Below are positions 619 to 18,214 of a DNA stretch of 23,330 bases, piece after piece. The first letter of the stretch is position 1, and every line of letters starts with the position of its first letter. This stretch comes from a virus. The position numbers and the translations under genes are program-made. The notes below the pieces were generated by a model that was not told where the DNA came from, searched no databases, and saw nothing but the letters and a program-made list of their open reading frames with translations. Location: the IMG/VR virus record IMGVR_UViG_3300047440_000577, positions 1-23,330 of that record; one strand, 5' to 3'.

Positions 619-2312
619 CCTTCACCCACAGGGTTGACCAATACGCCGTGCGCGTGCACGAGAGCGACATCGTGGCGGGCCCGCTCGTCCGTCTGGCATG
701 TCAGCGCCACCTCGAGGATCGACGCCAGGCGGCGAAGAAATCTGGCCATAAGGCTGGGATCTGGTTTCACGAGGCGGCCGCCAACCACGTCATCGAATTC
801 TTTGAAGGGGTGCTGCGCTTGCCGGACACGCTGGACGAGGATGGCGATCCCGTGCCGTTCGGGCTGACGCCGGCCAACACGTTCATCGTTGGCTCGATTT
901 TCGGCTGGAAGATGACTGACGGCTGGCGCCGGTTCCGTGAAGCCTACGTCGAGGAAGGGAAGGGCAACGCCAAAACGCCGCTCGGCGCCGGCATCGGACT
1001 GTATGGGCTCACCATGGACGGTGAGCAGGCCGCCGAGATCTATTCGGTGGCGTCCGGCATCGAGCAAGCCCGCATCTGCTGGCGCGACGCCGATCGGATG
1101 GTCGGCGCCTCGCCGGACTTGCGCGAGCTCGTCTACCGCGGCGCCGACAACCTGGCCTATGCGGCGACCTACTCCTGGTTTCGCCCGCTCTCGAAGGAAA
1201 AGCGCGGCAAGTCCGGCCCGCGGCCGCACATCGTGATCTTCGACGAGATGCACGAGTATGCCGATGCGGTCGTCGTCAACAAGATGCGCGCCGGCACGAA
1301 GCGGCGCAAGCAACCGCTGTCGCTGGGCATCACGAACAGTGGGTATGACCGGACGTCGATCTGTTGGCAGCATCATGAGCACAGCCGCCGCGTGCTCGAG
1401 GGGATCGTTGACGACCCGCGGCACTTCGCCTTCGTCTGCGGCCTCGACGAGGGGGACGATCCGATGACCGATTCGCGCTGTCACGCGAAAGCGAATCCGA
1501 ACCTCGGGTACATCATCCAGCAGGAGTATCTCGATCGCCAGGTCGCGAACGCGCAGCACATTCCGAGTGAAACGAACACGGTCTTGCGCCTGAATTTCTG
1601 CGTCTGGACGCAGGCCCATACGCCCGCCTGGGCGATGGCGAAGTGGCTCGACGCCGGCAAGCGACTCGTCATCAAGGACGAAGACCTGATCGGCCATCCC
1701 TGTTACGGCGGACTCGATCTCGGTCAGACCGATGACTTCGCGTCATGGGTGCGTCTCTGGGATCTCGGTCATTTGTGTGCGATCAAGGTGCGGTTCTGGC
1801 TGCCGCGTGCCGCGCTCGAGAAGTATCCGGACCGACCGTACGCCGAATGGGAACGGGCCACCATCGATGGCCATCCGCTGCTCGAGGTGACGGAAGGGAA
1901 TACGACGGACGTCGATCTGATTGAAGAGGCCGTGCTGCAGGATGCGCGGAATGACGGCGTCCTCGAGATCGCCTACGACAAGCGCTTCGCGCAGCAGCTC
2001 GCGCTCCATCTGCAGGGCGGCGGCATCACGATGGTCGACACGCCACAAGGGTATGCGCTCAACGAACCGATCCGGTCCGTCTCCAAGCTGATTGCCGACG
2101 GCGAGCTCGCGCACGGCAACAACCTGATCATGACGTGGCAGATGGATAACACGGTGCTGCGCCCTGGTCGCAACAAGGAAGTGCGGCTCGACAAAGAGGC
2201 GTCGAAAGAGAAGATCGACGGACCGTCCGCGCTGGTCATGGCGAACGCGCGGCGGATTGCGCAGGCAAAACCCAAAGATTACCAGTTGATCATTCTCGGG
2301 AGCCGCGTATGA
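615..2312 (+). CDS. terL: Terminase large subunit, Terminase_1 (HK97-like) type
   Basis: This 565-residue protein is the ATPase-nuclease that drives DNA into the prohead and cuts it. The N-terminal ATPase half shows a Walker-A-like loop EGKGNAKT (114-121; this family uses a degenerate version), Walker B IVIFDE (206-211) and a coupling motif around GITNSG (238-243). The C-terminal nuclease half has acidic residues in the expected places: D368 in GGLDLGQTDD, D455 in IAYDKRF and D535 in KIDGPSALVMA. Length is normal for the family. It overlaps terS by four bases (ATGA) and is itself overlapped by the first sugar-enzyme-island gene, so terminase and island are probably translated from one message. 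Confidence 0.95.
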   Translation: MTFTHRVDQYAVRVHESDIVAGPLVRLACQRHLEDRRQAAKKSGHKAGIWFHEAAANHVIEFFEGVLRLPDTLDEDGDPVPFGLTPANTFIVGSIFGWKMTDGWRRFREAYVEEGKGNAKTPLGAGIGLYGLTMDGEQAAEIYSVASGIEQARICWRDADRMVGASPDLRELVYRGADNLAYAATYSWFRPLSKEKRGKSGPRPHIVIFDEMHEYADAVVVNKMRAGTKRRKQPLSLGITNSGYDRTSICWQHHEHSRRVLEGIVDDPRHFAFVCGLDEGDDPMTDSRCHAKANPNLGYIIQQEYLDRQVANAQHIPSETNTVLRLNFCVWTQAHTPAWAMAKWLDAGKRLVIKDEDLIGHPCYGGLDLGQTDDFASWVRLWDLGHLCAIKVRFWLPRAALEKYPDRPYAEWERATIDGHPLLEVTEGNTTDVDLIEEAVLQDARNDGVLEIAYDKRFAQQLALHLQGGGITMVDTPQGYALNEPIRSVSKLIADGELAHGNNLIMTWQMDNTVLRPGRNKEVRLDKEASKEKIDGPSALVMANARRIAQAKPKDYQLIILGSRV

Positions 2313-2878
2313 ACCTCACCGCCGCGCTCGCCACTGAGGGATGGATGGCCGAAGACGAATTGATCTGGCTCGCTGAGCAGGCGCAGTCGTGCCAGGAGAT
2401 TATCGAAGTCGGCTGTTGGAAGGGCCGCTCCACACTGGCGCTCGCCGACAACACACCGGGCCATGTCTGGGCCGTCGATCATTGGCGCGGGACCGCAGGC
2501 GATCCTCATCTCGCCGAAGTGGAAAGGCTTGGTGGTCCCGACGGCCTCTATCAAGAGTTTTGTCGCAACATGGGCGACCAGGTGAGAGGGCGCATGAGAG
2601 ACAACATCAGCATATTGCGGATGGATGCCTCCGAGGCGGCGAGCTATTTTCGACCGGCCTCGGTTGATCTGATCTTTATCGATGCGAGCCACATCTACGC
2701 CGACGTCAAGCGAGACCTCGAGACCTACAGGCCGTTCGTGAAGCCCGGCGGGATTCTCTGTGGCCACGATTACGCCTGCCCGGTGCACATCGGCGTGCAA
2801 CACGCGGTCGATGCACTCTTCCCGACCGTCAACCGCGCCGCGATGTCGATCTGGTGGATCAGAAAAGATGCCGCGTAA
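2309..2878 (+). CDS. Class I SAM-dependent methyltransferase, Methyltransf_24-like (first copy)
   Basis: This 189-residue protein has a Rossmann-fold methyltransferase core. Motif I is IIEVGCWKGRST (31-42). The acidic end of strand 2 is AVDHW (55-59). A later strand carries FIDASHIY (123-130), followed by FVKPGG (143-148) and GHDY (152-155). This layout matches PF13578 (Methyltransf_24), whose members are often found beside glycosyltransferases and often act on sugars. The substrate cannot be read from sequence. The ATG overlaps the terL stop (ATGA). It resembles the enzyme at 3032-3610, suggesting an old duplication. No signal peptide or membrane segment is evident, so it should be cytosolic. 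Confidence 0.85.
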   Translation: MNLTAALATEGWMAEDELIWLAEQAQSCQEIIEVGCWKGRSTLALADNTPGHVWAVDHWRGTAGDPHLAEVERLGGPDGLYQEFCRNMGDQVRGRMRDNISILRMDASEAASYFRPASVDLIFIDASHIYADVKRDLETYRPFVKPGGILCGHDYACPVHIGVQHAVDALFPTVNRAAMSIWWIRKDAA

Positions 2879-3035
2879 AGGCCAACGTCAACCGAAGACG
2901 CCCCAGCAAATTGAACGCTGGAAAGCCACGATGAACGATCCGCTGCGGCGGGCGCTCTGGCGGGCGAAGATTTCGCAGACGATCCGCGCGAAGGGCATTA
3001 CCCCGCAGTTATATGCGCGGCGGGAGACCTCATGA
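2868..3035 (+). CDS. Small basic protein, NUMOD3-like
   Basis: This 55-residue, strongly basic protein begins MPRKGQRQPKTPQQIERWK and contains WRAKISQTIRAKG. The pattern of a basic start, an ERWK/M stretch and a KIS..I+.KG end recalls NUMOD3-type DNA-binding segments associated with phage homing endonucleases, but no nuclease domain is present. The ATG at 2868 overlaps the end of the preceding methyltransferase by 11 bases, and its stop overlaps the next start in ATGA, which supports it as a real gene. It may be a remnant of a homing element or a small DNA- or RNA-binding protein. The function is not established. Confidence 0.6.
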   Translation: MPRKGQRQPKTPQQIERWKATMNDPLRRALWRAKISQTIRAKGITPQLYARRETS

Positions 3036-3610
3036 GGCCTGAACTGGACAACCTTCCGTCTCCGAACTGGTTTCATCATGGCGAGGAGATCCTGACGTTG
3101 CTGGAGCTCAACCAGGCGAAGATCTGCGTGGAGCTCGGGTCCAATCGGGGTTGCTCGGCGATCGCGATGGCGAGACTCATCCGGAAGTGGGGCGGGAAAT
3201 TGACGTGCGTGGATACCTGGTCGCAGAGCCAGCCAGGCTACGTCGATCTGGCGGACTTCGTCGCGAATGTCGCGGCGGCCGGTGTCACGGAGACGGTGGA
3301 TGCCATCCGCCGTACGACGCTCGAGGCCGCGGCGGACTGGGATCGCGGGCCCATCGATGCGCTCTATGTGGATGCGGGGCACACCAAGGAAGAGTGTCTG
3401 GCGGACCTCAAGGCGTGGTGGCCGCACATCCGCGTCGGCGGCCTCGTCATTGGCGATGACTATGATGACCCGCATGGGATTCCCGCCCTCGGCGTGACCG
3501 CGGCGTGGGATGCCTTCGAGCAGACTTACGCGCAGCCCTTCACGCGGGTCACGACGGCCGGCGGTCAGCTGGCCGGTGGCAGTCGTCTGATCTGGGGGCT
3601 CAAGCGATGA
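3032..3610 (+). CDS. Class I SAM-dependent methyltransferase, Methyltransf_24-like (second copy)
   Basis: This 192-residue protein has the same motif order as the enzyme at 2309-2878: CVELGSNRGCS (32-42), VDTW (60-63), YVDAGHTKE (112-120) and GDDY (141-144). It differs enough in sequence to be a diverged paralogue or a separate acquisition. The D-W pair after strand 2 and the D-x-x-H motif are conserved in both, so both probably bind SAM in the same way but may act on different acceptors. It is coupled by ATGA overlaps at both ends. It sits among glycosyltransferases, so O-methylation of a sugar is a reasonable guess; the acceptor is unknown. Confidence 0.85.
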   Translation: MRPELDNLPSPNWFHHGEEILTLLELNQAKICVELGSNRGCSAIAMARLIRKWGGKLTCVDTWSQSQPGYVDLADFVANVAAAGVTETVDAIRRTTLEAAADWDRGPIDALYVDAGHTKEECLADLKAWWPHIRVGGLVIGDDYDDPHGIPALGVTAAWDAFEQTYAQPFTRVTTAGGQLAGGSRLIWGLKR

Positions 3611-4383
3611 CGATCGTCGTGTTCTCCAAGGATCGCGCGCTGCAGCTCGACGCGTTCCTGCGATCATATGAACGGTGGGTCTGGCCTCAGTGCAATATCG
3701 ATGTCGTGTACTTGGCGACTTCCGATCGGCACCGCGCAGCCTATCAGCAGGTCTTTGCCCGCCATCGCTGTGCCTTCCCCCGCGAACAAGCGGACTTCAA
3801 AGCGACGCTGTTGTCGATCTTCCCGCCGGAAGGATTCGTCGTGTTCTTTGTGGATGACCAGGTATTCATTCGTCCCTGGCGGGTCGAGCAGATCGGAGGC
3901 CTCAGCTTACGACTCGCCCCGCATTTGACGCGGTGCTACCCGATGAATGCCGAGCAGGCCGTGCCCTCGTTCTTGCCGCTGACCGAGACCTTGCAATGCT
4001 GGCGATGGGCGGATGGCCAGGGCGACTGGGGTTATCCGCTCTCGCTTGACGGCCATGTCTTCGACCTGGAGGAATTCGGGCCGATTCTGGAAGGCTTGGA
4101 GTTTCATTCCCCGAACACCTTGGAAGCGGCACTCTTCCGGCAGGCCTTGCCGAGGTATCGCGATCGCTCAGGGATCTGCTACCGAGAATCGCGCGTCGTG
4201 AATGTGCCCTGGAACACGGTGCAGCGCTGCCAAACGCCGAATCGTTGCGCCGAGGCCATGAGCCCGGACGCGATGCTCGAGCGCTGGGAAGCCGGCGAGC
4301 AGATTGCGCTCGAGGCGCTCTACGGCATCGTGAACGAAAGCTGCCACCAGGAATTCCCCTTGGTCCTCGAACGGCGGGTATGA
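3607..4383 (+). CDS. Putative GT-A-type glycosyltransferase
   Basis: This 258-residue protein begins MTIVVFSKDRALQLDAFLRS, the beta-strand plus helix start common to GT-A glycosyltransferases. It has an acidic metal-binding-like motif FFVDDQVF (80-87) at the position expected for a DxD. The rest (for example DGHVFDLEEFGPILEGLEF) matches no family I can name, so the GT assignment rests on the N-terminus, the acidic motif and the neighbours. No membrane helix is seen. The ATG at 3607 overlaps the previous stop; a longer upstream start at 3505 would overlap the methyltransferase by about 100 bases and is unlikely. Confidence 0.65.
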   Translation: MTIVVFSKDRALQLDAFLRSYERWVWPQCNIDVVYLATSDRHRAAYQQVFARHRCAFPREQADFKATLLSIFPPEGFVVFFVDDQVFIRPWRVEQIGGLSLRLAPHLTRCYPMNAEQAVPSFLPLTETLQCWRWADGQGDWGYPLSLDGHVFDLEEFGPILEGLEFHSPNTLEAALFRQALPRYRDRSGICYRESRVVNVPWNTVQRCQTPNRCAEAMSPDAMLERWEAGEQIALEALYGIVNESCHQEFPLVLERRV

Positions 4384-5240
4384 AGCGGATCTACATCACG
4401 TTCAGCGGCGCTCCGTACGAGGCGACGACCAAGTTGATCGTCGAGCGCGGCCGGTCGCTCGGGGTTGATGACGTGGTCGTCTACGATGATCGCTGGCTCG
4501 TCAAGCAGGAGTTCTACGCGCAGAATCGTTGGCTCTGGGATCACCCCCACAAGCGAGGCTTTGGCTGGTATGCGTGGAAACCGTTCATCATCTGGGACGC
4601 GCTCTCCAAACTGCAAAATGGCGACATCGTCCTCTATACGGATGCCGACACCGAGCCGATCGCCGATCTGAGTCCGCTCTTTGCTCAGTGTCTCGCCCAG
4701 GGCGGCATCATGCTCTTTGCCTCTGAGAACCATTTGCAGTTCGAATGGTGCAAGAGAGATTGCTATCTGACGATGGGACAAAGGATTGACTATGGCGCGC
4801 CCGCCGGCGTGGCGCGATTTGCGCTCTTTCAAAAAGGGCCGTGGAAGGTGACGCAGTTCCTGATGGAGTGGTTGACCTATTGCGTGAACCCCACCACCAC
4901 TACCTTTGATCGGTCCGTGCTTGGCGCTGAAGTGCCGGGATTCATCGAACACCGCACCGAACAGGCGATCATGTCGAACCTCGCGCACAAGTACCAGATT
5001 GAGCTGCATCGTGAGGCCTGCCAGTCAGGAAACGGGTCGTCACGAGACCGTCATCTCTATCAGCAACTGTTCGTCCAGCATGATGACGACGTCGAACATG
5101 TGACCGCGCCAGTGCAGGGGAGTGCCTTCGCGAATATCGAATCGACAGATTGTCTCTGCGTAGAGACGGTCCAAGGCGACCGCTTTTTGGCGCGCCATCT
5201 GGATTGTCCCCTTCATGGTCGTGTGTCTGCGGACCGATGA
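4380..5240 (+). CDS. Putative glycosyltransferase (RGFGWYAWKP/DAD type)
   Basis: This 286-residue protein carries RGFGWYAWKPFII (59-71) followed by GDIVLYTDADTEPI (81-94). Proteins with this R-G-[FY]-G-[YW]-W-K-P block and a DxD in the next strand are found in polysaccharide clusters as GT-A-like transferases. The DAD (88-90) is the likely nucleotide-sugar and metal site. The C-terminal third, with D/E/H-rich segments such as QHDDDVEHV, is less typical. No membrane anchor is visible. The ATG at 4380 overlaps the upstream stop (ATGA); longer starts would run deep into the previous gene. Donor and acceptor are unknown. Confidence 0.75.
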   Translation: MKRIYITFSGAPYEATTKLIVERGRSLGVDDVVVYDDRWLVKQEFYAQNRWLWDHPHKRGFGWYAWKPFIIWDALSKLQNGDIVLYTDADTEPIADLSPLFAQCLAQGGIMLFASENHLQFEWCKRDCYLTMGQRIDYGAPAGVARFALFQKGPWKVTQFLMEWLTYCVNPTTTTFDRSVLGAEVPGFIEHRTEQAIMSNLAHKYQIELHREACQSGNGSSRDRHLYQQLFVQHDDDVEHVTAPVQGSAFANIESTDCLCVETVQGDRFLARHLDCPLHGRVSADR

Positions 5241-5250
5241 AAGGATCTGT

Positions 5251-5985
5251 GTGCACATATCGGATCTGACTGGGCTCTCCATGTGGCAGGACTGGCAGCG
5301 CATCGTCGAGCAAGCGTTGCCGTTCTACGCGCGCAGTCCGATTTACGTGAATCAGGATGTCACCCTCGAGGAGATGGAACGGATCGTCGCGGCCTTACCG
5401 CACGTCTACGATGTCTCAGGCATGGTGCGCGACGCAACGCATGGGGCACGGGTCTTTGAGACGAGCCGCGGGGCGATGACGCGTCAATGGGTGGACGGGA
5501 ACGTTGAGATCAACTTTCTCGTCCGGGCGCTGCCCTCCCTGCGAGACATGCATGTGCTGGACATTGGCGCCGGGTACGGTCGACTCGCGGTGATGCTCGC
5601 GCCGCTCGTGCAGTCCTATACCTGCGTGGATCCGGTCCCGGTCTCGACGATGGTCTCTCGCGAATACACGCGTCAGTACGCCCCAGCGGTGACGATTCTG
5701 GACCTGGCGGAATTTTGCGCGGCGACCGTGCACCCAACGCTCGCCATCAATATTCATAGCTGGAATGAATGCTCGTATCAGCAGATTGCGAACTGGCTCG
5801 AGGCGCTGGCCACGTTGAATGTCCGCTATCTCTTCACGGTCACGCATGAGCCCGACAGGGACATCTATCTGACCTGGGACGGACGGCAGAACTTCAAGAC
5901 GCTGCTCACTGAGCGCTATACCGTCATCGCGGAAGAGTGCCTGGGCTTCAGAGGGTGTCCGCACGTCCTCTGGGAACGACGATGA
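5251..5985 (+). CDS. SAM-dependent methyltransferase, sugar O-methyltransferase-like
   Basis: With the GTG at 5251 this is a 244-residue protein. Motif I is VLDIGAGYGRLA (102-113) and the strand 2 acid is in CVDP (about 125-128). A central NIHSWNECS...WLEAL segment recalls the SxSEM/W-L region of putative sugar O-methyltransferases. An O-methyltransferase capping a glycan would fit the neighbouring genes. The start is uncertain. GTG 5251 has AGGA at 5242-5245 and lies just after the previous stop, so I prefer it. ATG 5281 would give 234 residues and lacks a clear site; ATG 5215 would overlap the previous gene by 26 bases. The end overlaps the next start in ATGA. Confidence 0.75.
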   Translation: MHISDLTGLSMWQDWQRIVEQALPFYARSPIYVNQDVTLEEMERIVAALPHVYDVSGMVRDATHGARVFETSRGAMTRQWVDGNVEINFLVRALPSLRDMHVLDIGAGYGRLAVMLAPLVQSYTCVDPVPVSTMVSREYTRQYAPAVTILDLAEFCAATVHPTLAINIHSWNECSYQQIANWLEALATLNVRYLFTVTHEPDRDIYLTWDGRQNFKTLLTERYTVIAEECLGFRGCPHVLWERR

Positions 5986-6584
5986 AGAGCGTGATCATCT
6001 ACTGCCCGCATCTGAATCGCGATCTGCGCGGGCTCTTGAATGTGGTGCCCTTCCCTGGGATTTGGACCGGTGAGAAAACCGAAAGGGGGGAGGATGGCTG
6101 CCTGCAATGCCACCAGGCGATCGTCGCCTACGCCAAGGCGCACCGATGGCCGTCCGTTTTCGTGATGGAAGACGATTGCGCCTTTACGCCTCATTACTCG
6201 ATGGCGTCTTGGGTCACCGCCGGTCAGTGGGCTCAGATGCACGGGTACGATGTGGTGGTCGGTGGCTCCACGCGGACCACGGGTGAGCGGGTGGTCAGCG
6301 ATGGCAAGATCGCCGTCGAGACCTTCACCAGCGCGCATTGCGTGATCTATCTGGAATCAGGCTATGACCGGATCCTGAAGACCACACAACCGCATGATGT
6401 CTCGATTGGGTTGAACGGCGCGAGGTGTTTGCTGCTCTGGCCCTTTGTCGCGGTGCAGCGTGCCGTCTTTTCTGGGATCGTCAGGCAGGAAGTGGATTAC
6501 ACGCTGCTGTACGAAGCCCATGAGAAGCGCCTCGGCCACGCGCTGGGCCTCCTGCAACCGCAGATTCCAATGCCGGTGTATTGA
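5982..6584 (+). CDS. GT25-like glycosyltransferase
   Basis: This 200-residue protein has the hallmark pair of GT family 25: GCLQCHQAIVAYAK (39-52), corresponding to the family's G-C-x-x-S-H-x-x-[IL] block, and shortly after it VFVMEDDCAFT (59-69) with the EDD metal-binding motif. GT25 includes bacterial lipooligosaccharide galactosyltransferases and the collagen hydroxylysine galactosyltransferases of animals. This copy is compact and carries Cys where the family usually has Ser before the His. No membrane segment is visible. It is coupled by ATGA upstream and TTGA downstream. GT25 membership is likely; the sugar and acceptor are unknown. Confidence 0.75.
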   Translation: MKSVIIYCPHLNRDLRGLLNVVPFPGIWTGEKTERGEDGCLQCHQAIVAYAKAHRWPSVFVMEDDCAFTPHYSMASWVTAGQWAQMHGYDVVVGGSTRTTGERVVSDGKIAVETFTSAHCVIYLESGYDRILKTTQPHDVSIGLNGARCLLLWPFVAVQRAVFSGIVRQEVDYTLLYEAHEKRLGHALGLLQPQIPMPVY

Positions 6585-6775
6585 CGGCTGATAAAACATT
6601 GCAAGAACGACTTGCCGATGCTGCACGTCGAGAAGATGAGTATCGTGAGCAGATGGCAGACATCGATTGCAAACATTGTGGGCATAGATGGGCCGCTCAT
6701 TTCGTGGCAGTCGATGGCATTGGTAATCTCGTGCGGCTGTGTCCTAACTGCACATTTGAAGCTAAAAACTCATGA
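6581..6775 (+). CDS. Small zinc-ribbon-like protein
   Basis: This 64-residue protein has an acidic/basic helical N-half (LQERLADAARREDEYREQMAD) followed by C30-x2-C33 and C54-x2-C57, a treble-clef or zinc-ribbon spacing. The TTG at 6581 overlaps the previous stop as TTGA, mirroring the ATGA junctions around it, and its own stop overlaps the next ATG; this decides the rare start. By hand count it has 94 G+C in 195 bases (48%), visibly lower than the genes on either side, which suggests a separate origin. Function is unknown; a nucleic-acid or protein-binding adaptor is possible. Confidence 0.65.
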   Translation: MTADKTLQERLADAARREDEYREQMADIDCKHCGHRWAAHFVAVDGIGNLVRLCPNCTFEAKNS

Positions 6776-7332
6776 TTAGCTTCGTGCTTCCGACGCTTGG
6801 TCGGCCTGGTCTCCTGCAGGCGCTCGACTCGATTGAAGTCTGGCCAGGCGACGAAGTGCTCGTCATTGGAGAAATGGCGAACCTGAATCCCTATATCCGA
6901 TCTTCTGATGTGCAGCGAGGGGTGCGATTCCTGCATTGCCCGCGCGGGAATGATTGGGGTCATACCGAGCGGAACTTCGCCAAGCCGTTTGCGAAAGGGC
7001 GCTACATCGCCAACCTTGACGATGACGACGTCTTTGCCCCGGGCACGCGAGCATTGATGGCGGACGCGATGGAGACGACGCCAGACCAGCCGGTGATCTT
7101 TCGGATGCGCTACCCGAATGGGATGACGCTTTGGTATCGATCCCATTTTCTCGGGGTGGGAAACGTCGGCACGCCGCAGATGTTTTTCCCAAACGATCTG
7201 GGCAAGCTCGGCACCTGGGGCAACTGCTATACCGGTGATTTTTCCTTCCTCGAAAGCTGTCGATGGAAGCCGGAGGAGTACGTATGGCGTGGAGAAATCA
7301 TCGCGCTGATTGGGCGAGACCAGAACACCTGA
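6772..7332 (+). CDS. GT2-family glycosyltransferase
   Basis: This 186-residue protein has a minimal GT-A domain: FVLPTLGRPGLLQALDSI at residues 4-21 (strand plus helix), a middle GNDWGHTERNFAKPFAKGRYI segment around 59-79, then NLDDDDVF (81-88) as the DxD-type metal and nucleotide-sugar site. It is shorter than most GT2 enzymes and lacks transmembrane segments, so it should be soluble. It closes the first island; 11 bases separate it from the ribbon-helix-helix gene. It shares the NDWG-to-acidic-motif layout with the GT2 at 14304-14924 in the second island. Confidence 0.85.
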   Translation: MISFVLPTLGRPGLLQALDSIEVWPGDEVLVIGEMANLNPYIRSSDVQRGVRFLHCPRGNDWGHTERNFAKPFAKGRYIANLDDDDVFAPGTRALMADAMETTPDQPVIFRMRYPNGMTLWYRSHFLGVGNVGTPQMFFPNDLGKLGTWGNCYTGDFSFLESCRWKPEEYVWRGEIIALIGRDQNT

Positions 7333-7343
7333 AAGGACACACG

Positions 7344-7535
7344 ATGCATAACGGCAGTCCTCCAGATGATTCGCCGCGGCGGCCGCGAGGTCGACCGAGG
7401 GTCGAAGAGCCCTCAAAGGAATTCTCGATTCGCTTGCCGCCACAGACGTACGACCGGTTGATCGACCTAGCGAAGCGGGAGGAGCAGAGCGTGAGCGCCA
7501 CCGTGCGGCAGCTCCTGATTCTTCGGCTGAAGTGA
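7344..7535 (+). CDS. Ribbon-helix-helix DNA-binding protein
   Basis: This 63-residue protein has an AT-hook-like basic arm, RRPRGRPR, followed by a CopG/Arc-type ribbon-helix-helix: strand EFSIRLPPQTYDRLIDLAK and second helix SVSATVRQLLILRLK. Such proteins dimerise and insert a two-stranded sheet into the DNA major groove, commonly as autorepressors or late-gene regulators. The ATG at 7344 has AAAGGA at 7332-7337, 6 bases upstream. It is the only clear transcription-factor-like gene here. It sits immediately before the capsid gene and an inverted repeat, so control of the head block or of its own operon is an obvious possibility, unproven from sequence. Confidence 0.85.
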   Translation: MHNGSPPDDSPRRPRGRPRVEEPSKEFSIRLPPQTYDRLIDLAKREEQSVSATVRQLLILRLK

Positions 7536-7551
7536 ATTTTCGTATCTGAAC

Positions 7552-7593
7552 AAATCCATCCCATCGCGAAAATGCATAGGATGGACGCCATCC
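7552..7593 (+). promoter_or_regulatory. Candidate operator/translational hairpin before the capsid gene
   Basis: The 58-base gap after the ribbon-helix-helix gene holds a perfect inverted repeat, GGATGG-ACG-CCATCC, at 7579-7593. It ends directly against the ATG of the protease-capsid gene. The likely ribosome binding bases (AGGA, 7578-7581) lie at the edge of and inside its left arm. A related CCATCCCATC stretch occurs at 7556-7565. This could be an operator for the upstream regulator, an RNA hairpin limiting capsid translation, or both. No convincing -35/-10 pair is seen. Confidence 0.5.
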
Positions 7594-9543: not shown

Positions 9544-9558
9544 TTCGGTTCTCCACAT

Positions 9559-9595
9559 GGAGGCGAGCTCGGCCGCGTTCGGCTGGGCCGCCTCC
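9559..9595 (+). terminator. Stem-loop after the capsid gene
   Basis: GGAGGC (9559-9564) can pair with GCCTCC (9590-9595) around a GC-rich loop with further internal pairing potential. No T-run follows, so it is not a textbook intrinsic terminator. It lies in the 81-base gap after the capsid stop and before a gene with its own ribosome binding site, a place where an attenuator or 3'-end stabiliser would separate high capsid output from lower portal output. Confidence 0.4.
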
Positions 9596-9624
9596 GTCAC
9601 TCGTCCCTGCGTTAAGGGAGTCCG

Positions 9625-9828
9625 ATGGCCTTCGACAATTTCACGATTCATCACTACCGCGTCCTCACCGATACGCCTGATGGGCATCGTCCTGGCGCCA
9701 TCATCGAACTGACCGAAGACGCCGGCAATATTCTGGCGTCGGTCGGTTGTGTGGAACGCCTGCCTGACGATGCAAACCCACAGAAAGGCACCTATAAACG
9801 CCGCGATCTGACGGCTGAGAAGCGATGA
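9625..9828 (+). CDS. Small phage protein between capsid and portal
   Basis: This 67-residue protein includes the stretch PGAIIELTEDAGNILASVGCVERL. The pattern G-x-hydrophobic-E-L-x-x-x-x-A-x-x-hydrophobic-G-x-V-E occurs in many short phage proteins of unknown function encoded in structural modules; they resemble small beta-alpha domains. AAGGGAG at 9614-9620 precedes the ATG at 9625 by 4 bases. Its stop overlaps the portal start in ATGA, so it is translated with the portal. Possible roles are head decoration or assembly; nothing in the sequence proves either. Confidence 0.75.
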   Translation: MAFDNFTIHHYRVLTDTPDGHRPGAIIELTEDAGNILASVGCVERLPDDANPQKGTYKRRDLTAEKR

Positions 9829-11255
9829 AGATTCAGATCGGTCGGTTCGTGCTCGACACCAAAGGCAGCGCATCGGCGGCGCTCGGTGACGGGATTACCC
9901 ACATTCCGGCGAGTAGTGCAGGGTGGTGGCCGATCCTGCGCGAGAGTTTCGCCGGCGCGTGGCAGCGAGGAGTCGCTGTACCCGTGGAAGACGCCCTGGC
10001 CCATCCCACCTATTGGGCCTGCGTCACCTTGATCGCGGGCGACGTGGCGAAGATCCGCCCGAAGCTCGTCGAGGAAGTTGACGGGATCGATGTCGAAGTC
10101 GAGCGCGCGTCACCGTATGCGCCTGTGCTCGATCGACCGAACCACTATCAGAACCGCATTCAGTTTTTTACCTACTGGATGATGTCCAAATTGATGCGCG
10201 GGAATGCGTACGCGCTGAAGGCGCGCGACAGCCGCGGCATCGTGACGGATCTCTATCTGCTCGATCCGTTGCGCGTGCGTCCGCTCGTCGGGCCGAGCGG
10301 CCAGGTGTACTACGCCTGCCAACAGGATCTGCTCGCGGATCTCACCGAAGCCTCGATCGTCATTCCGGCGCGAGAGATTATTCACGACATCGGCTTTGCG
10401 CCCTATCACCCTCTCTGTGGCTTCTCACCCGTCTATGCCTGCGGGCATGCCGCGATGCAAGCGCTGACGATCAATAGGAACGCCACGAAGCTTTTTAATA
10501 ACGGATTCCATCCCGGCGGCATTCTCAGCGCGCCTGGCCAAATCAGCGAGACGACCGTCACGCGATTGGAGAAGTACTGGAACGAAAACTATGGCGGTCC
10601 CGAAAACGCGGGCAAGTTGGCGGTCGTCGGCGACGGGATGAAGTTCGATCAGCCGGCCGTGATGTCAGCCGTCGACGCGGAAATCATCGACCAGTTGAAG
10701 TGGGACGACGAAAAGATCTGCGCGGTCCACCATGTCCCGCCCTACAAAGTCGCGGTTGGTCCGCTGCCGTCCTATAACAACGTCGAAGCCTTGGGCCAGG
10801 ACTATTACGGCCAAGCGCTCCAGTACTACTTTGAATCGATCGAGCTCTGTCTGACGGAAGGGCTCGAACTCGGGAGCGTGAAACGACCTGATGGTGGCGT
10901 CGGCTACGAGGTGGAGTTCTGCATCGAAGAACTCGATCGCATGGATTCCGTGCAGCGGATGGACGTGGCCACCAAGAGCGTCGTCGGCGGCGTGCGCAAA
11001 CCGAATGAGGCCCGCGCGATGTTCAACCTGCCGCCGGTCCCTGGCGGTGACCAGGTGTATCTGCAGAAGCAGAACTGGCCACTCGAAAAATTGGGCAGCG
11101 ACAACGTGAAGCCCGCGAAGACGGCGACAGCGCCACAACCGCCCGCAGCGCTTCCTGAACCTGCCAAGGCGATCGATTTCGATTTCGATCTCTTCGATTT
11201 GGCGCTTGATTTTGACCACGACTTTTTCGATCGGGCCGTTGAAGCATCTTTATGA
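9825..11255 (+). CDS. Portal protein, HK97 gp3-like
   Basis: This 476-residue protein should form the twelve-subunit ring at one capsid vertex through which DNA passes and onto which the connector docks. Family features include an early PTYWACVTLIAGDVAKI (61-77), MRGNAYALKARD (124-135), a KWDDEKICAVHHVPPY block (292-307) and KPNEARAMFNLPPVPGGDQ (392-410), which is strongly diagnostic for phage_portal (PF04860). An odd tail follows: a proline/alanine linker, then a run of alternating acidic and aromatic residues (450-470). The gene starts in ATGA overlap with the small upstream gene and ends overlapping the collagen-like gene. It lies downstream of the capsid gene, the reverse of the usual order. 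Confidence 0.93.
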   Translation: MKIQIGRFVLDTKGSASAALGDGITHIPASSAGWWPILRESFAGAWQRGVAVPVEDALAHPTYWACVTLIAGDVAKIRPKLVEEVDGIDVEVERASPYAPVLDRPNHYQNRIQFFTYWMMSKLMRGNAYALKARDSRGIVTDLYLLDPLRVRPLVGPSGQVYYACQQDLLADLTEASIVIPAREIIHDIGFAPYHPLCGFSPVYACGHAAMQALTINRNATKLFNNGFHPGGILSAPGQISETTVTRLEKYWNENYGGPENAGKLAVVGDGMKFDQPAVMSAVDAEIIDQLKWDDEKICAVHHVPPYKVAVGPLPSYNNVEALGQDYYGQALQYYFESIELCLTEGLELGSVKRPDGGVGYEVEFCIEELDRMDSVQRMDVATKSVVGGVRKPNEARAMFNLPPVPGGDQVYLQKQNWPLEKLGSDNVKPAKTATAPQPPAALPEPAKAIDFDFDLFDLALDFDHDFFDRAVEASL

Positions 11256-12064
11256 AAGTTGAATCCGCAAAGGATCGATTCGAGCTTCAGCTTGCTGAAA
11301 CGGTATTGCGTGCGATCAAGCGAGCGACCGCGCCTTTACTCGAGCGCATCGCGGTACTCGAGGCGCGTGCGCCCATTCCGGGGCCAGCTGGCAAGGACGG
11401 TCAGGATGCGACGTCCATTGATAGGGAACAACTGAAATTCGAGATCGATCAATGGATTGCGCCGAAGGTCATGAGGGAAATCGAGGCCGCCATCGCCGCC
11501 ATTGATAAACCCAAAGATGGTCGCGACGGCATCGATGGCAAAGATGCGCCGGTGGTGGATCTCGACGATCTCGCGATCCGCGCCGCGGCGCTCGTGCCGG
11601 GAGCGAAGGATGGGGCCGACGGGAAAGATGGCCGTGATGGACAACAAGGCGTGCCAGGGGTGCCTGGCCGAGACGGCGCGGCCGGCGAGCGTGGCGAGAA
11701 AGGTCTCGATGGGTCCGCTGGCCGAGATGGCACGTTGCAAGGTGCGAGCCTCAAGCAACTCGACGATCGGACTTGGCAGATCCTCAGAACAGACGGGTCG
11801 ATTTTAGGCGAGATGAAATCGTCGGCAATGGTCTACCGAGGCATCTATCGATCAGGGGATGCCTACGAAAAAGGCGACGTCGTCACGCGCGATGGGTCGC
11901 TCTGGGTTGCTCGCGAAGACACGCTGATGACGCCTGGCCAAGGCGCAACACCATGGCAATTGGCGGCAAAAGCAGGCCGAGATGGACGCGAAGGAAAGCC
12001 AGGTGCGCAAGGGTTGAACGGCGCGAAGGGTGAGCGCGGCGAGGCCGGGAGGAACTTTTCGTGA
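11252..12064 (+). CDS. Collagen-like structural protein with carbohydrate-binding-like module
   Basis: This 270-residue protein starts with a helical segment (1-40, likely coiled coil). It has short Gly-X-Y pieces near 45-52, a longer collagen-like block (about 120-164, GRDG/GERG/GEKG triplets), a middle module (194-240) and a second Gly-X-Y block (242-267). The middle module has the spacing of CBM5/12-like folds: YRGIYRSGDAYEKGDVV, then GSLWVA, then PGQGATPWQLA. Similar portal-adjacent proteins occur in other phages. A trimeric fibre or head appendage that binds a surface glycan is likely. It overlaps portal and the second island by four bases at each end. It is a prime candidate substrate for the adjacent sugar enzymes. 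Confidence 0.85.
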   Translation: MKVESAKDRFELQLAETVLRAIKRATAPLLERIAVLEARAPIPGPAGKDGQDATSIDREQLKFEIDQWIAPKVMREIEAAIAAIDKPKDGRDGIDGKDAPVVDLDDLAIRAAALVPGAKDGADGKDGRDGQQGVPGVPGRDGAAGERGEKGLDGSAGRDGTLQGASLKQLDDRTWQILRTDGSILGEMKSSAMVYRGIYRSGDAYEKGDVVTRDGSLWVAREDTLMTPGQGATPWQLAAKAGRDGREGKPGAQGLNGAKGERGEAGRNFS

Positions 12065-12678
12065 TCTCAGTGCCGAAGCTCTGGCCCGGCGAGACATTCG
12101 TCCTCATCGGTGGCGGGCCCAGTCTCACGCCGGCCGATGTCGACGCCGTCCGTGGCCTGGCGCGCGTGATTGCGATCAACGACGCCTACCGACTGGCGCC
12201 GTGGGCCGACGTGCTCTATGCCTGCGATCAGAAATGGTGGACCTGGCATAAGGGCGTGCCAAGTTTCACGGGTCCGAAATATTCAGTCGCCGCATCCGAT
12301 CCGGTGACATGGCCCGGGGTTCAGGTTCTGGAGAACACCGGCTTTGACGGGTTGGAGCTCGAGCCGACTGGCCTGCGGACTGGCAGGAACAGCGGGTTTC
12401 AGGCAATCAACTTGGCCGTGCATTTGGGCGCCAGTCGAATCCTCTTACTCGGGTACGACATGTGTCCTGACGGCACGCAGGAGCATTGGTTCGGTGAGCA
12501 TCCAGATTGCCAGCCATCGCCATACCCGGAGATGCGCGAGCTGCTAGAGACGCTCGTCGCCCCATTGGCCGAACTCGGCATCACGGTGATCAACTGTTCC
12601 AGGCGGACGGCACTGACCGCGTTTCCCTGCGTCCCACTCGAGCAGGAACTCGCGCGCCTACAGGAGCGTGCCGCGTGA
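12061..12678 (+). CDS. DUF115/MptE-like Rossmann-fold protein
   Basis: This 205-residue protein has FVLIGGGPSLTPADVDA near the start (13-29), a NDAYRLAPWADVLYACDQKWW segment (40-60) and LLLGYDM (128-134). These match the DUF115 group, which includes the MAF-type flagellin glycosylation proteins and archaeal MptE. Phage copies are common and are sometimes labelled norphogenetic protein. A role in transferring or activating a sugar is plausible but not proven, and only the core domain is present. It begins with GTG overlapping the collagen-like stop (GTGA) and opens the second island. No membrane segment is visible. Confidence 0.75.
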   Translation: MISVPKLWPGETFVLIGGGPSLTPADVDAVRGLARVIAINDAYRLAPWADVLYACDQKWWTWHKGVPSFTGPKYSVAASDPVTWPGVQVLENTGFDGLELEPTGLRTGRNSGFQAINLAVHLGASRILLLGYDMCPDGTQEHWFGEHPDCQPSPYPEMRELLETLVAPLAELGITVINCSRRTALTAFPCVPLEQELARLQERAA

Positions 12679-13409
12679 TCAAACTGTTCTGCTGCTTCTA
12701 CAACGAAGCGGTCTTGATCCCGTTCTTTCTGAGTCACTACCACTACGTCGACACGATTCTCGCGTTCGTGACGCCATCGACCGACGCGACGCGCGAGTTG
12801 CTGGCGGCCGACGCCCGCGTGACGATTGTGGATTGCGAGATGCCGAGCGGGATCGATGACGATCTGAAGGCAAGCGCCCTGAACGAGGCGATCAAGCTGA
12901 CTGATCGGATGCACGACTGGCACATTGTCGTGGATGCGGACGAGTTCATCTGGCCACCCGATGATCCCACCGGCGCGACGGCGAAATCGTATCTCGAGAC
13001 CGTGCCGCCGCAGGACGTCGCGCTGCCAGGCTGGTTGAACCAAATTTATCGACATGCGGATGACGCAGATCTGGATATCACGCAAACGCCTGTTGTGCTG
13101 CAACGTCGTCATGGCCATCTGTTTGGCTCGAAGCCGAGTGTGATGCGCTCAAATCGCGGCCTGCAGCTCGTGCCTGGGAATCACTACTTCATCAACCGCG
13201 AGGCCTGTTCGGAGACCCATCGGTTCGATGGCGCGCACTGGCAGAACGCCGATCCGTCGTTTGCCGTGACGCGCCGCGTCCGCGATCGGGCCCAACGGAT
13301 CAGCCCATCGAATCGGCTCCGTCACCACGGCACGCATCATTGGGGCGCCACAGCGGCTGTCGTGGAAGAGGAGCTGGCGAGTCATCGCTATGACCCCGTT
13401 GTCTTCTAA
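12675..13409 (+). CDS. Glycosyltransferase, GT2/GT92-like (Glyco_tranf_2_4)
   Basis: This 244-residue protein opens IKLFCCFYNEAVLIPFFLSH. The YNEA-x-x-[IL]-x-x-F block (9-18) is typical of PF13704-like transferases. STDAT (35-39) follows, and the acidic active-site motif is HIVVDADEFIW (83-93). The later HHGTHHWG region is histidine-rich and may help bind the acceptor. The GTG start overlaps the previous stop (GTGA). Its end overlaps the next gene by 20 bases. It is soluble by appearance. The family assignment is good; the sugar is unknown. Confidence 0.85.
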   Translation: MIKLFCCFYNEAVLIPFFLSHYHYVDTILAFVTPSTDATRELLAADARVTIVDCEMPSGIDDDLKASALNEAIKLTDRMHDWHIVVDADEFIWPPDDPTGATAKSYLETVPPQDVALPGWLNQIYRHADDADLDITQTPVVLQRRHGHLFGSKPSVMRSNRGLQLVPGNHYFINREACSETHRFDGAHWQNADPSFAVTRRVRDRAQRISPSNRLRHHGTHHWGATAAVVEEELASHRYDPVVF

Positions 13410-14307
13410 GCCGCGCGTCTTCGGCATCGACTATCAATTCCTGTCGTGTGGGAATGTGTTTACGCAGGGCCTCGTCCATGCTGCGGCCGATCTCGGGATC
13501 GAGTACGTGCACGCGGATTGGAGCGAGCCGCGCCTGAACGATCGCATCGCGCAGTTCGCGCCGGACCTGATGTTCCTGGTGCATGGCCGTCGCTTCGCCT
13601 ATCAGTGGCGCCAGGTCGCGCGATCGGCCGTGTGGCTCTTGGATGAGCCGTACGAAGTGGACGATACGAGCGCCTGGTCCGGACGGTTCGACCATGTCTT
13701 TGTGAGCGATCCGTCGACGCTTGATCGGCACCAGCACGCCACGTACCTGCCGGTGTGTTACGACCCTCATGTGCACCGTCCAAGCGATGGCCCGCGCCCG
13801 CATGCGGTGGGGTTTATCGGAGGGGGGAACGGCACGCGTGATCGTTACCTGACCGGGTTAGCGCGTGCCGGACTCCTCAGTTATGTCGTCGGGGGTGCTT
13901 GGAACGATCCGGACGTCAATCGGCTCTGCCTGGCTGGCAACATCCAGCCCAGTCAAACGGCTGCGCTCTATCAGCAAACACGGATCGTGCTGAATGTCTT
14001 TCGAGAAGTCCATCACTTCAACCGTGACGGCATTCCTGCGACGTCGCTGAATCCTCGGGTCTATGAAGCGCTCGCCTGCGGGGCCCTGGTTGTCAGTGAA
14101 TGGCGGCCGGAGGTGGATCGCGTCGTCCCGGAGCTGCCAACGTTCCGATCCGAGCAGGAATGCATCGACTTGATCGCGGGCTTGATCGCCGAGCCGGATC
14201 GCGCCGAAGCCATCCGTTTGCAATGCGCGGCACGACTCAAGGATCACACGTACGCGAATCGATTGCAGACCGTCCTGGCCACAGTGGGATCGGCGGTGGC
14301 CGCATGA
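13390..14307 (+). CDS. CgeB-like GT-B glycosyltransferase
   Basis: This 305-residue protein has two Rossmann-like halves. The C-terminal half carries GFIGGGNGTRDRYL (141-154), LYQQTRIVLNVF (193-204) and LNPRVYEALACGALVVSEW (220-238), the donor-binding signature of Glyco_trans_1_2/CgeB-like enzymes. The E in the RVYEALACG motif is the conserved nucleotide-sugar contact in this class. It is the only clear GT-B enzyme in the window, so the two islands use both major glycosyltransferase folds. The ATG at 13390 overlaps the preceding gene by 20 bases, the longest overlap in the second island. Confidence 0.85.
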   Translation: MTPLSSKPRVFGIDYQFLSCGNVFTQGLVHAAADLGIEYVHADWSEPRLNDRIAQFAPDLMFLVHGRRFAYQWRQVARSAVWLLDEPYEVDDTSAWSGRFDHVFVSDPSTLDRHQHATYLPVCYDPHVHRPSDGPRPHAVGFIGGGNGTRDRYLTGLARAGLLSYVVGGAWNDPDVNRLCLAGNIQPSQTAALYQQTRIVLNVFREVHHFNRDGIPATSLNPRVYEALACGALVVSEWRPEVDRVVPELPTFRSEQECIDLIAGLIAEPDRAEAIRLQCAARLKDHTYANRLQTVLATVGSAVAA

Positions 14308-14924
14308 CCCCGCGCGTCTCCATCGTCACGACGGTGTACGACCGCGTCGCCTGTCTGCGCCGGTGCATACGCTCGGTCCAGAAACTGCAGTATCGCGACT
14401 TCGAACACCTGATCGTCTCAGATGCGCCGCCTGACCATGTGCTCTCAGAGATTGCCCAGGTGTGCGCCGACGCCGGAGTCCGGCATCTGAACTTGCCGGC
14501 CCGCACCAACGATTGGGGGATTTCTCCCGCGATGGCTGGCTTACGTGCCAGCGTCGGTGAATTCGTCTGCTTCCTCAGTGACGACAACGCTTACCTGCCG
14601 CATCACTTCGCGGCGTTGATCGCGGCCTACGATGCCGATCCCGATCTCGGCTTCGTCTACAGCTCGTGTCTCTATGCGGGCCGCCGCGAGCTCAGACACT
14701 GCCCGCCGGTCGGCGCCGGAATCGATCTTGGCCAGCCCCTCTTCCGTCGGTCCGTGCTCAAGGAACAGTTCGGAGACGAGCTGCCCTGTCGCGGTGTTTT
14801 CTCCTGGGATTGGGAATTGATCTGGCGGCTGATGGCCGCCAACGTTCGCTGGCAGCATATCGATGACCTGAGCTTTGTCTTTCGCCTCGAAGCGTATCCG
14901 ACGTTGATGGCGGTGCTGGCGTGA
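14304..14924 (+). CDS. GT2-family glycosyltransferase
   Basis: This 206-residue protein begins with a textbook GT2 start, RVSIVTTVYDRVACLRRCI (4-22), has TNDWGISPAM in the middle (68-77) and VCFLSDDNAYLP as the acidic motif (88-99). FSWDWELIWRLM near the C-terminus resembles the ED/WE-x-x-x-R helix of the family. It is soluble. Start and stop overlap its neighbours in ATGA and GTGA, so this last island gene is directly coupled to the head-tail connector gene. It shares the NDWG element with the GT2 at 6772-7332. Confidence 0.88.
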   Translation: MTPRVSIVTTVYDRVACLRRCIRSVQKLQYRDFEHLIVSDAPPDHVLSEIAQVCADAGVRHLNLPARTNDWGISPAMAGLRASVGEFVCFLSDDNAYLPHHFAALIAAYDADPDLGFVYSSCLYAGRRELRHCPPVGAGIDLGQPLFRRSVLKEQFGDELPCRGVFSWDWELIWRLMAANVRWQHIDDLSFVFRLEAYPTLMAVLA

Positions 14925-15634: not shown

Positions 15635-15987
15635 ACATCTCGATCGGCACGTTGCGGCAAGTCGTGACGTTGTCCAATCCCGGCCCGCCGGTCTCTGATG
15701 GTGATGGCGGATTCACACAAACCTATACGCCGCTCGATCCGGCAACCTGGCGTTGCGCCCTCGAGAAAGCGAGCGTGCGGAACGCCGAACGGCATTTCGC
15801 GGCGACGATCACTGCGCATGCGACGTACGTCATGACCGGTCGATTTCATGCCGGCATCACCACGCAGACGCGAATGGTCTGGACCGATCGATCGGGCGCC
15901 GTCCACACCGGCAATGTGCTGGACGTCTCCGATACCGAAGGGGCGGGGGTGCAAACCATTGCGCTCGTCGCGGAGGTCGTCGCGTAA
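15601..15987 (+). CDS. Head closure protein / head-tail adaptor
   Basis: This 128-residue protein shows the Phage_H_T_join pattern: IGTLRQVVTLSNPG, D-G-D-G-G-F, a WRCALEKAS strand, FHAGITTQTRMVW and a final GVQTIALVAEVV. This small beta-barrel closes the connector channel. The ATG at 15601 overlaps the connector gene by 34 bases. GTG at 15619 or 15625 would give a shorter N-terminus and less overlap; the conserved part starts at ISIGTLRQ, so the true start is uncertain by a few residues. Confidence 0.85.
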   Translation: MADGAGVAVGVNISIGTLRQVVTLSNPGPPVSDGDGGFTQTYTPLDPATWRCALEKASVRNAERHFAATITAHATYVMTGRFHAGITTQTRMVWTDRSGAVHTGNVLDVSDTEGAGVQTIALVAEVVA

Positions 15988-16864: not shown

Positions 16865-16903
16865 GGGTTGGTCGGACACGAACAGCAGTAAAGGAGAACG
16901 CAG

Positions 16904-17311: not shown

Positions 17312-17313
17312 GT

Positions 17314-17664: not shown

Positions 17665-17708
17665 TTCGACGGAAACGAGTCCAACGGGTTTCGACAGGAG
17701 TTTGAGTC

Positions 17709-18211: not shown

Positions 18212-18214
18212 CCA

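What the first reader, a model, noticed from the sequence alone, without database searches (positions are those of the whole stretch)
2309..14924. Two sugar-enzyme islands wired into a phage late operon
Thirteen non-structural genes (six likely glycosyltransferases, a DUF115-like protein, three methyltransferases and small accessory proteins) lie in two blocks, 2309-7332 and 12061-14924, flanking the capsid-portal-collagen block. They have no visible promoters or terminators of their own. The first gene of each island overlaps the preceding terminase or collagen-like stop, and the last overlaps the connector start. The enzymes lack evident membrane segments, so the acceptor is likely cytosolic. 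Phage-encoded virion glycosylation is known in some actinobacteriophages; here an assembly-coupled glycan pathway with methylation is inferred. Modification of DNA or of host surface glycans is not excluded.
Basis: partly seen in the sequence, partly recalled or inferred. Interest (0 to 1): 0.8.

Follow-up and report, generated by a model that had tools for sequence, protein, structure and literature searches.

The report
Phage virion-glycosylation gene cassette
This phage carries a swappable set of sugar-transferring and methyl-transferring enzyme genes inside its virus-assembly operon, anchored by an enzyme shaped like the bacterial one that sugar-coats flagella, so it most likely coats its own virus particles with sugars, as shown so far only for a few mycobacterial phages.

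Summary
The window is a whole 23.3-kb virus contig: a siphovirus late operon with 13 non-structural genes in two blocks (2309-7332 and 12061-14924). Four glycosyltransferases and two methyltransferases pass Pfam cut-offs; a third methyltransferase and three more glycosyltransferases are likely.

Relatives reframe it. Block 2 (DUF115-like D115, GT1_19, GT2_20) is the anchor: D115 sits between portal/capsid and connector in essentially every relative, in Pseudomonas D3/PAJU2 and in alphaproteobacterial prophages. Block 1 is a movable cassette; in two other contigs the same genes, in nearly the same order, join block 2 before the connector, and related cassettes occur in phages with unrelated capsids. 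The two islands are thus one pathway. Island genes elsewhere are overwhelmingly glycosyltransferases and methyltransferases.

D115's confident model best matches Maf, the cytosolic enzyme that O-glycosylates flagellin before assembly (Z 16.4, against 12 for sialyltransferases). Best explanation: cytosolic glycosylation, with sugar methylation, of virion subunits (0.62). Acceptor, donor and activity are not shown. Two 54-57-kb relatives lack hydroxymethylase-type genes, so glucosylated DNA is unlikely. P1's distant homologue pmgO is dispensable. New variant of a known kind.

The parts
2309..2878 (+). MT1, class I SAM methyltransferase (Methyltransf_24), block 1
   Evidence: Pfam PF13578 E 1.4e-20; homologue at the same place in L002 and L041; pN/pS 0.26 against L002
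2868..3035 (+). small basic ORF, 55 aa, function unknown; seen only here and in the identical contig L132
   Evidence: no Pfam or PHROG match
3032..3610 (+). MT2, Methyltransf_24 methyltransferase
   Evidence: PF13578 E 6.5e-24; homologue downstream of GT2_20 in L026, L140, L021-L024 and L060
3607..4383 (+). GTa6, predicted glycosyltransferase-like protein (hydrophobic strand then Asp-Asp)
   Evidence: no family match; homologues in L002, L026, L137, L140 inside GT cassettes; model unreliable (pLDDT 44)
4380..5240 (+). GTb7, predicted glycosyltransferase with LYTDADT (DXD-type) motif
   Evidence: 66% identical to the L026 protein, motif invariant; last 28 residues unmatched
5215..5985 (+). MT3, SAM methyltransferase-like (alternative start 5281)
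   Evidence: PF05175 E 2e-4, PF13649 E 4e-4, below cut-offs; conserved in L002, L026, L138
5982..6584 (+). GTc9, GT25-like predicted glycosyltransferase (VMEDDC motif)
   Evidence: phrog_2835 glucosyltransferase E 0.0066; weak GT25 match E 0.22; relatives in other contigs, those with readable context in late-gene cassettes
6581..6775 (+). small Cys-rich (zinc-ribbon-like) ORF, accessory
   Evidence: weak Zn-ribbon matches only; not found in relatives
6772..7332 (+). GT2_11, family-2 glycosyltransferase (DDDD motif), block 1 end
   Evidence: PF00535 34.9 bits against cut-off 23.3; 84% aa identity to L002, pN/pS 0.14
7344..7535 (+). ribbon-helix-helix protein; core gene beside the capsid gene, not part of the cassette
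   Evidence: PF01402; 33 loci
11252..12064 (+). collagen-like protein with CBM5/12-like C-terminal module, downstream of portal; candidate virion surface protein
   Evidence: PF01391 E 1.2e-9, PF02839 E 0.003; C-terminal module conserved in PAJU2 and JLK-2012, which have no long GXY run
12061..12678 (+). D115, Maf/GT42-fold putative initiating glycosyltransferase, anchor gene of block 2
   Evidence: phrog_4603 E 8.5e-45; AF2 pLDDT 97.3; Z 16.4 to Maf 5mu5 over 184 residues; 50/53 loci with portal/MCP upstream, 33/33 with connector/neck/tail tube downstream
12675..13409 (+). GT2_18, glycosyltransferase (Glyco_tranf_2_4, DADEF motif)
   Evidence: PF13704 46.7 bits against cut-off 27.5; found in L002, L009, L027, L041
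13390..14307 (+). GT1_19, CgeB-like glycosyltransferase (Glyco_trans_1_2)
   Evidence: PF13524 74.8 bits against cut-off 25; next to D115 in most close relatives
14304..14924 (+). GT2_20, family-2 glycosyltransferase
   Evidence: PF00535 54.4 bits against cut-off 23.3; next to GT1_19 in most close relatives

Best explanation
The two blocks together are one virion-glycosylation cassette of a siphovirus late operon. D115, a small soluble enzyme with the fold of the flagellin glycosyltransferase Maf, transfers a first sugar (by analogy an activated nonulosonic acid or similar host-made sugar) to Ser/Thr of a virion subunit in the cytosol. GT1_19, GT2_20 and the variable glycosyltransferases extend it, and the Methyltransf_24-type enzymes O-methylate sugars. 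Because the genes are arranged for co-transcription and translational coupling with capsid, portal and connector genes, subunits are modified during or just before assembly. The variable part is exchanged between phages, so related virions would carry different glycan coats. Shown here: gene content, operon overlaps, D115 fold (predicted model), conserved position, purifying selection, cassette mobility. Inferred: catalysis, donor, linkage, acceptor (head, neck or tail-tube protein, or the collagen-like protein) and benefit.
For: D115 model (pLDDT 97) matches Maf 5mu5 at Z 16.4 (184 of 205 residues), then CstI/CstII sialyltransferases at 11-12; Maf glycosylates flagellin in the cytoplasm before assembly (PMC4065374). 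D115 lies downstream of portal/MCP in 50 of 53 loci and upstream of connector/neck/tail tube in 33 of 33; same in D3, PAJU2 and S20 and in prophages, mostly proteobacterial. All seven portal- or capsid-fetched relatives long enough to tell carry it. Block 1 genes join block 2 before the connector in L026 and L140. Similar cassettes precede HK97-gp10-like/tail-tube genes in L134, L137 and L138, whose structural genes did not match the window's profiles. Of 125 island ORFs from relatives, the leading families are GT2, GT9, GT8, GT-D and FkbM/MT_24 methyltransferases. pN/pS 0.14-0.52, as for structural genes. Mycobacteriophages glycosylate capsid and tail tube with their own GTs (PMC12363180).
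Against: No biochemical or mass-spectrometric evidence. D115 occurs without the collagen gene (D3) and the collagen family without D115 (JLK-2012), so no acceptor stands out. P1's distant D115 homologue pmgO, with pmgP and the GT pmgQ, is dispensable for plaques (PMC9024508, PMC10695390) and PmgO is not mentioned in the text of the P1 virion-proteome paper. The Maf/GT42 fold is shared with 6-hydroxymethylpterin diphosphokinase (Z 11.4), so fold alone does not prove transferase activity. No sugar-nucleotide synthesis genes were found, so donors must come from the host.
Confidence: 0.62

Rival explanations
1. The enzymes modify a host surface glycan (O-antigen or capsule) late in infection or in lysogens, for example to block superinfection or re-adsorption to debris.
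For: GT2, GT9 and CgeB-type enzymes and sugar methyltransferases also build bacterial surface glycans; phrog_841 GtrB-like match E 0.004 for GT2_20; G002 carries an integrase.
Against: No flippase-like or multi-TM partner among the cassette proteins and no clear membrane segment; the genes are embedded among head-tail genes in several different phage backbones; D115 resembles a protein O-glycosyltransferase most.
Confidence: 0.14
2. The enzymes hypermodify phage DNA (glycosylated and methylated bases).
For: Phage DNA glycosylation exists (T4; general knowledge); G001 and G002 carry ordinary DNA methyltransferases.
Against: No thymidylate-synthase/hydroxymethylase family gene in the 54- and 57-kb relatives; no such family among their other ORFs or among 125 island ORFs; no T4-type glucosyltransferase match.
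Confidence: 0.05
3. Late-operon gaps are hot spots for accessory (moron) genes; the GT genes are a loose assortment with unrelated roles, not one pathway.
For: Block 1 is absent in most relatives and gene content varies strongly; non-sugar genes also occur in nearby gaps (an HNH-like ORF in L026, an ATPase fusion in L009).
Against: The same ordered set (MT2-GTa6-GTb7-GTc9-GT2_11) recurs in two distinct places and several contigs; recognisable families in the gap after D115 are almost all GTs and methyltransferases; selection is purifying.
Confidence: 0.12
4. D115 is an assembly factor or virion component that has kept a GT fold without catalysis, and the other enzymes act on it or on something else.
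For: PAJU2 ORF010, a D115 homologue, is deposited as 'structural protein'; its place beside the connector is very constant.
Against: Highly conserved GPS, N110, G131, D133, H142, H147 and N178 residues across 79 homologues look catalytic; D115 is absent from related phages and P1 pmgO is dispensable; the basis of the PAJU2 label could not be checked, and no proteomics stands behind the Eowyn label in the passages of that paper I read.
Confidence: 0.07

Closest known systems
Virion glycosylation of mycobacteriophages Che8, Corndog and Myrna (Freeman et al. 2023, as described in PMC12363180)
   Same: Phage-encoded glycosyltransferases modifying virion proteins (there capsid and tail tube)
   Different: There few GTs in actinobacteriophages, shown by experiment; here a larger cassette with methyltransferases and a Maf-fold enzyme, in a D3/PAJU2-like siphovirus lineage, not yet tested
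Maf flagellin glycosyltransferases (5mu5; Aeromonas caviae Maf1, PMC4065374)
   Same: D115 has the same fold over 184 residues; by inference a soluble enzyme glycosylating a structural subunit before assembly
   Different: D115 is 205 aa, about the size of the matched domain only (Maf chain 632 aa), encoded by a phage late operon with no flagellin nearby
Pseudomonas phages D3 and PAJU2 (Detrevirus), orf7/ORF010 and D3 orf12-13
   Same: D115 homologue between capsid or head-tail adaptor and the tail genes; D3 orf13 is a Methyltransf_23 protein
   Different: Much smaller island, no GT1_19/GT2_20 seen; no function shown in the records
Tetraselmis viridis virus S20
   Same: terS-terL-portal-protease-capsid followed by D115, GT-D, second D115, methyltransferase and GT2 genes before the head-closure gene
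   Different: Different enzyme set; separate protease
Phage P1 pmgO-pmgP-ppp-pmgQ
   Same: D115 homologue (30% identity) near a predicted glycosyltransferase (pmgQ) among late genes
   Different: Unrelated myovirus; dispensable; no glycan reported in the papers read

Membership tests
Phage-encoded virion glycosylation systems | phage genome encodes glycosyltransferases | tested here: met
   four GTs above Pfam cut-offs
Phage-encoded virion glycosylation systems | virion proteins carry the glycan (MS, staining) | not testable with these tools
   metagenomic contig; no virions
Phage-encoded virion glycosylation systems | loss of the GT removes the glycan | not testable with these tools
   needs mutants of a cultured relative
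Maf / DUF115 glycosyltransferases | fold of the Maf catalytic domain | tested here: met
   Z 16.4, rmsd 3.4, 184 residues to 5mu5, 4 units above the next family
Maf / DUF115 glycosyltransferases | Pfam PF01973 (MptE-like, which I understand to be the former DUF115) above its curated cut-off | tested here: not met
   23.5 bits against 34.6
Maf / DUF115 glycosyltransferases | transfers nonulosonic acid to protein Ser/Thr | not testable with these tools
   biochemistry needed
GT42 sialyltransferases (CstI/CstII) | GT42-like fold | tested here: met
   Z 11-12 to 2p2v and 1ro8
GT42 sialyltransferases (CstI/CstII) | detectable sequence homology to a GT42 chain | tested here: inconclusive
   profile of 79 D115s finds no GT42 chain at E<=1, though phrog_4603 bears the sialyltransferase name
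DNA hypermodification (T4-like glucosylation) | nucleotide hydroxymethylase or similar base-modifying enzyme in the genome | tested here: not met
   PF00303 absent from G001 and G002, with positive controls; none. The window itself and perhaps the relatives are fragments
O-antigen conversion (gtrABC) | membrane flippase GtrA, membrane-anchored GtrB and polytopic GtrC | tested here: not met
   no clear TM segment in any cassette protein
phrog_4603 (phage 'alpha-2,3-sialyltransferase') | profile match over the full length | tested here: met
   E 8.5e-45, positions 1-175 of 178

The most novel reading that the evidence does not exclude
A widespread, largely unremarked class of phages of proteobacteria has taken up the flagellum's trick: a minimal Maf-type enzyme, kept at the head-tail junction of the late operon, O-glycosylates virion subunits with a nonulosonic-type sugar, and exchangeable downstream GT/methyltransferase (even B12 radical-SAM) cassettes give each phage its own glycan 'serotype'.
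Probability: 0.3. Interest if true: 0.75.

Novelty: new variant of a known kind. Interest (0 to 1): 0.55.

Why it matters
If true, virion glycosylation is not an oddity of mycobacteriophages but a common, modular trait of siphoviruses of proteobacteria (D3, PAJU2 and prophage-like regions of Paracoccus, Ensifer and Phenylobacterium carry the anchor gene), with exchangeable glycan cassettes that could shape virion stability, adsorption or recognition. It gives genes now labelled 'alpha-2,3-sialyltransferase', 'hypothetical' or 'pmgO' a testable function, and the test can be started in E. coli K-12 with phage P1, for which single-gene knockouts already exist.

Tried and rejected
Megablast of the window against phage records: no match. 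Rfam and tRNA scans: nothing. A structure for GTa6 from 3 sequences failed (pLDDT 44; only the first ~70 residues reach moderate confidence), so its GT nature rests on motif and context. Sequence searches of the PDB with D115, GTa6 and GTb7 profiles gave nothing useful. Foldseek alone ranked an oxidoreductase first with TM about 0.3; the realignment placed Maf and Cst on top. I considered the collagen-like protein as the sole acceptor (GTc9 weakly resembles GT25, a family that includes collagen galactosyltransferases, from general knowledge) and dropped it as unproven: D3 has D115 without it and JLK-2012 has its family without D115. Distance correlations of D115 with coll 0.68, connector 0.51 and MCP 0.47 and none with terL show co-inheritance with the head module but do not single out an acceptor (few loci, relatedness not fully controlled). 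'Structural protein' labels for D115 homologues were not used as proof: no proteomics was found for Eowyn, the PAJU2 paper was not found in the library, and PmgO was not found in the text or the part of the virion-protein table seen of the P1 paper. The PHROG name 'DNA methyltransferase' for MT1/MT2 (phrog_2675) was rejected: only about positions 305-462 of a 599-position profile match, while Pfam calls the same stretch Methyltransf_24.
Full report
WHAT IS THERE. The window is an entire IMG/VR virus record of 23,330 bases: terS, terL, [block 1], RHH protein, fused prohead-protease/capsid protein (phrog_617), g14, portal, collagen-like protein, [block 2], connector, head-tail proteins, tail tube, tape measure and tail genes, all on the + strand. 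The thirteen non-structural genes are at the stated coordinates. Four glycosyltransferases (GT2_11, GT2_18, GT1_19, GT2_20) and two Methyltransf_24 proteins pass Pfam cut-offs; MT3 is just under; GTa6, GTb7 and GTc9 carry a hydrophobic strand followed by DD, DAD or EDD but lie in no Pfam family. The genes are tightly coupled: 15 of 29 junctions overlap by exactly 4 nt. The promoter and terminator scans are near chance level and say little.

RELATIVES: WHICH PARTS HOLD STILL. I fetched loci with portal, capsid, D115, GTb7, GTc9 and GTa6 and bacterial-genome loci with D115, called ORFs and searched them with profiles iterated from each window protein. The alignment query for D115 found 436 loci in viral contigs, of which the best 80 were returned. 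After removing duplicates, D115 has portal or capsid upstream on the same strand in 50 of 53 loci with enough upstream DNA (median 1.3 kb) and connector, neck or tail-tube genes downstream in 33 of 33. The seven portal- or capsid-fetched relatives with enough downstream sequence all have D115 (L002, L004, L005, L009, L036, L103, L104), so this is not only a product of fishing with D115. GT1_19 and GT2_20 follow D115 in most close relatives. Genome loci place D115 next to head-tail genes in prophage-like regions, for instance of Solimonas, Phenylobacterium, Filomicrobium, Paracoccus, Ensifer and Pseudomonas resinovorans, which points to proteobacterial hosts.

BLOCK 1 IS A MOVABLE CASSETTE. Most relatives have no block 1: terL is followed by RHH and capsid. 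In L002 part of it (MT1, GTa6, GTc9, GT2_11) is in the same gap, with MT3 instead between collagen and D115. In L026 and, independently, L140/L145 the genes MT2, (MT3), GTa6, GTb7, GTc9, GT2_11 stand in one run between GT2_20 and the connector, nearly the window's own order. In L137, whose capsid, adaptor and tail tube belong to other families (phrog_264, phrog_477, phrog_158), MT2, GTa6, a GT15-family enzyme, a further methyltransferase-like gene, GTc9 and GT2_11 sit between adaptor and tail tube; L138 and L134 have similar sets just before HK97-gp10-like genes. The two islands of the window are therefore best read as one pathway split by a rearrangement. Island genes evolve under purifying selection like their structural neighbours (pN/pS 0.14-0.52, against 0.10-0.52 for structural genes; synonymous sites are near saturation in some pairs).

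WHAT FILLS THE SAME GAP ELSEWHERE. I scanned 125 ORFs from the D115-connector gap of relatives. The leading families are Glycos_transf_2 (12), Methyltransf_24 (11), FkbM methyltransferases (10), Glyco_tranf_2_2 (8), GT9 (5), plus GT8, GT-D, GT29, TOD1, polysaccharide deacetylase and radical SAM/B12 proteins; no nucleotide-modifying family appears. Named phages with the same idea: D3 (D115, orf12, a Methyltransf_23 protein), PAJU2, Tetraselmis virus S20 (two D115s, GT-D, GT2, methyltransferase), the giant Caulobacter phage CcrBL9 (D115, methyltransferase and a GT9 protein right after tail genes) and P1 (pmgO, pmgQ).

D115. The AlphaFold2 model from 79 sequences is very confident (pLDDT 97.3). 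The best structural match by far is the Maf glycosyltransferase of Magnetospirillum (5mu5, Z 16.4, 184 residues), followed by the sialyltransferases CstI/CstII (Z 11-12) and archaeal 6-hydroxymethylpterin diphosphokinase (Z 11.4). GPS (19-21), D56, N110, G112, G131, D133, H142, H147 and N178 are conserved in 88-100% of homologues. [quoted passage not shown] That is the closest model for an enzyme encoded amid assembly genes: a soluble O-glycosyltransferase working on a subunit before polymerisation. D115 distances track those of capsid (0.47), connector (0.51) and collagen-like protein (0.68) but not terL: it travels with the head module.

ALTERNATIVES. DNA hypermodification: no thymidylate-synthase-type hydroxymethylase in two 54-57-kb relatives, with the search validated in control genomes, and none in Pfam scans of their remaining ORFs. 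Host-surface glycan: no membrane partner and no clear membrane segments. Mere hot spot: the ordered recurrence of the same set argues against it. Against the favoured reading: more distant kin lack D115 (EBPR siphovirus 3, JLK-2012), and P1 pmgO, pmgP and pmgQ can be deleted or knocked down without plaque defect (PMC9024508, PMC10695390). A decoration pathway would be expected to be dispensable in the laboratory, but nothing here shows a glycan.

VERDICT. Observation confirmed with small corrections. The interpretation (virion glycosylation) is plausible and strengthened (0.62), but its frame of two islands as a fixed design is replaced by an anchor gene with a movable cassette. Virion glycosylation by phages is known; the Maf-type anchor, the methylation arm, the modular exchange across capsid lineages and the breadth in phages of proteobacteria make it a new variant.

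Noticed in passing
L030:13097-14704; L039:14215-15813: Large proteins that look like B12-binding radical SAM enzymes (the L030 one was in the set where Pfam found B12-binding and Radical_SAM domains) lie inside the glycosyltransferase islands of two relatives; unusual in a phage late operon, possibly C-methylating a sugar or peptide.
   Followed up: partly
L004:7066-12820, L007:2539-7591, L026:6743-10004, L039:3753-9998: Between portal and D115 several relatives carry two collagen-like genes with a run of putative structural genes (repeat-rich and Ig-like looking proteins) between them: a variable virion-surface region next to the sugar cassette.
   Followed up: partly
window 11252-12064; PAJU2 ORF007; JLK-2012 gp62: The collagen-like protein's C-terminal CBM5/12-like module is conserved in phages whose version has no long collagen repeat; JLK-2012's copy is annotated 'portal protein'.
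   Followed up: partly
L129 (phage P1) 5944-6606: P1 pmgO, annotated as of putative morphogenetic function, is a distant D115 homologue (30% identity), with the predicted glycosyltransferase pmgQ three genes downstream; a ready laboratory test system.
   Followed up: partly
L011 (D3) 5691-6409: D3 orf7 appears annotated with a late start; the tblastn match in its frame begins at 5828, under the spurious-looking orf6.5.
   Followed up: no
window 9123-21252 and 882-6516: Two other IMG/VR contigs (L010, L132) are 99.98-100% identical to the window, so the assembly of both islands is supported by separate contigs.
   Followed up: yes
L015/L016 (rest of G001): The 54-kb relative carries OrfB_IS605 / Cas12f1-like TNB (TnpB-type) matches and several N6_N4 DNA methylase matches.
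   Followed up: no
L009:1010-4306: The capsid ORF of this relative reads through from an upstream AAA+ ATPase-like domain into the prohead protease-capsid protein (1098 aa).
   Followed up: no
window 2868-3035 and 6581-6775: Two tiny ORFs of block 1 (basic 55 aa; Cys-rich 64 aa) have no counterpart in relatives other than identical contigs; they may not be functional genes.
   Followed up: partly
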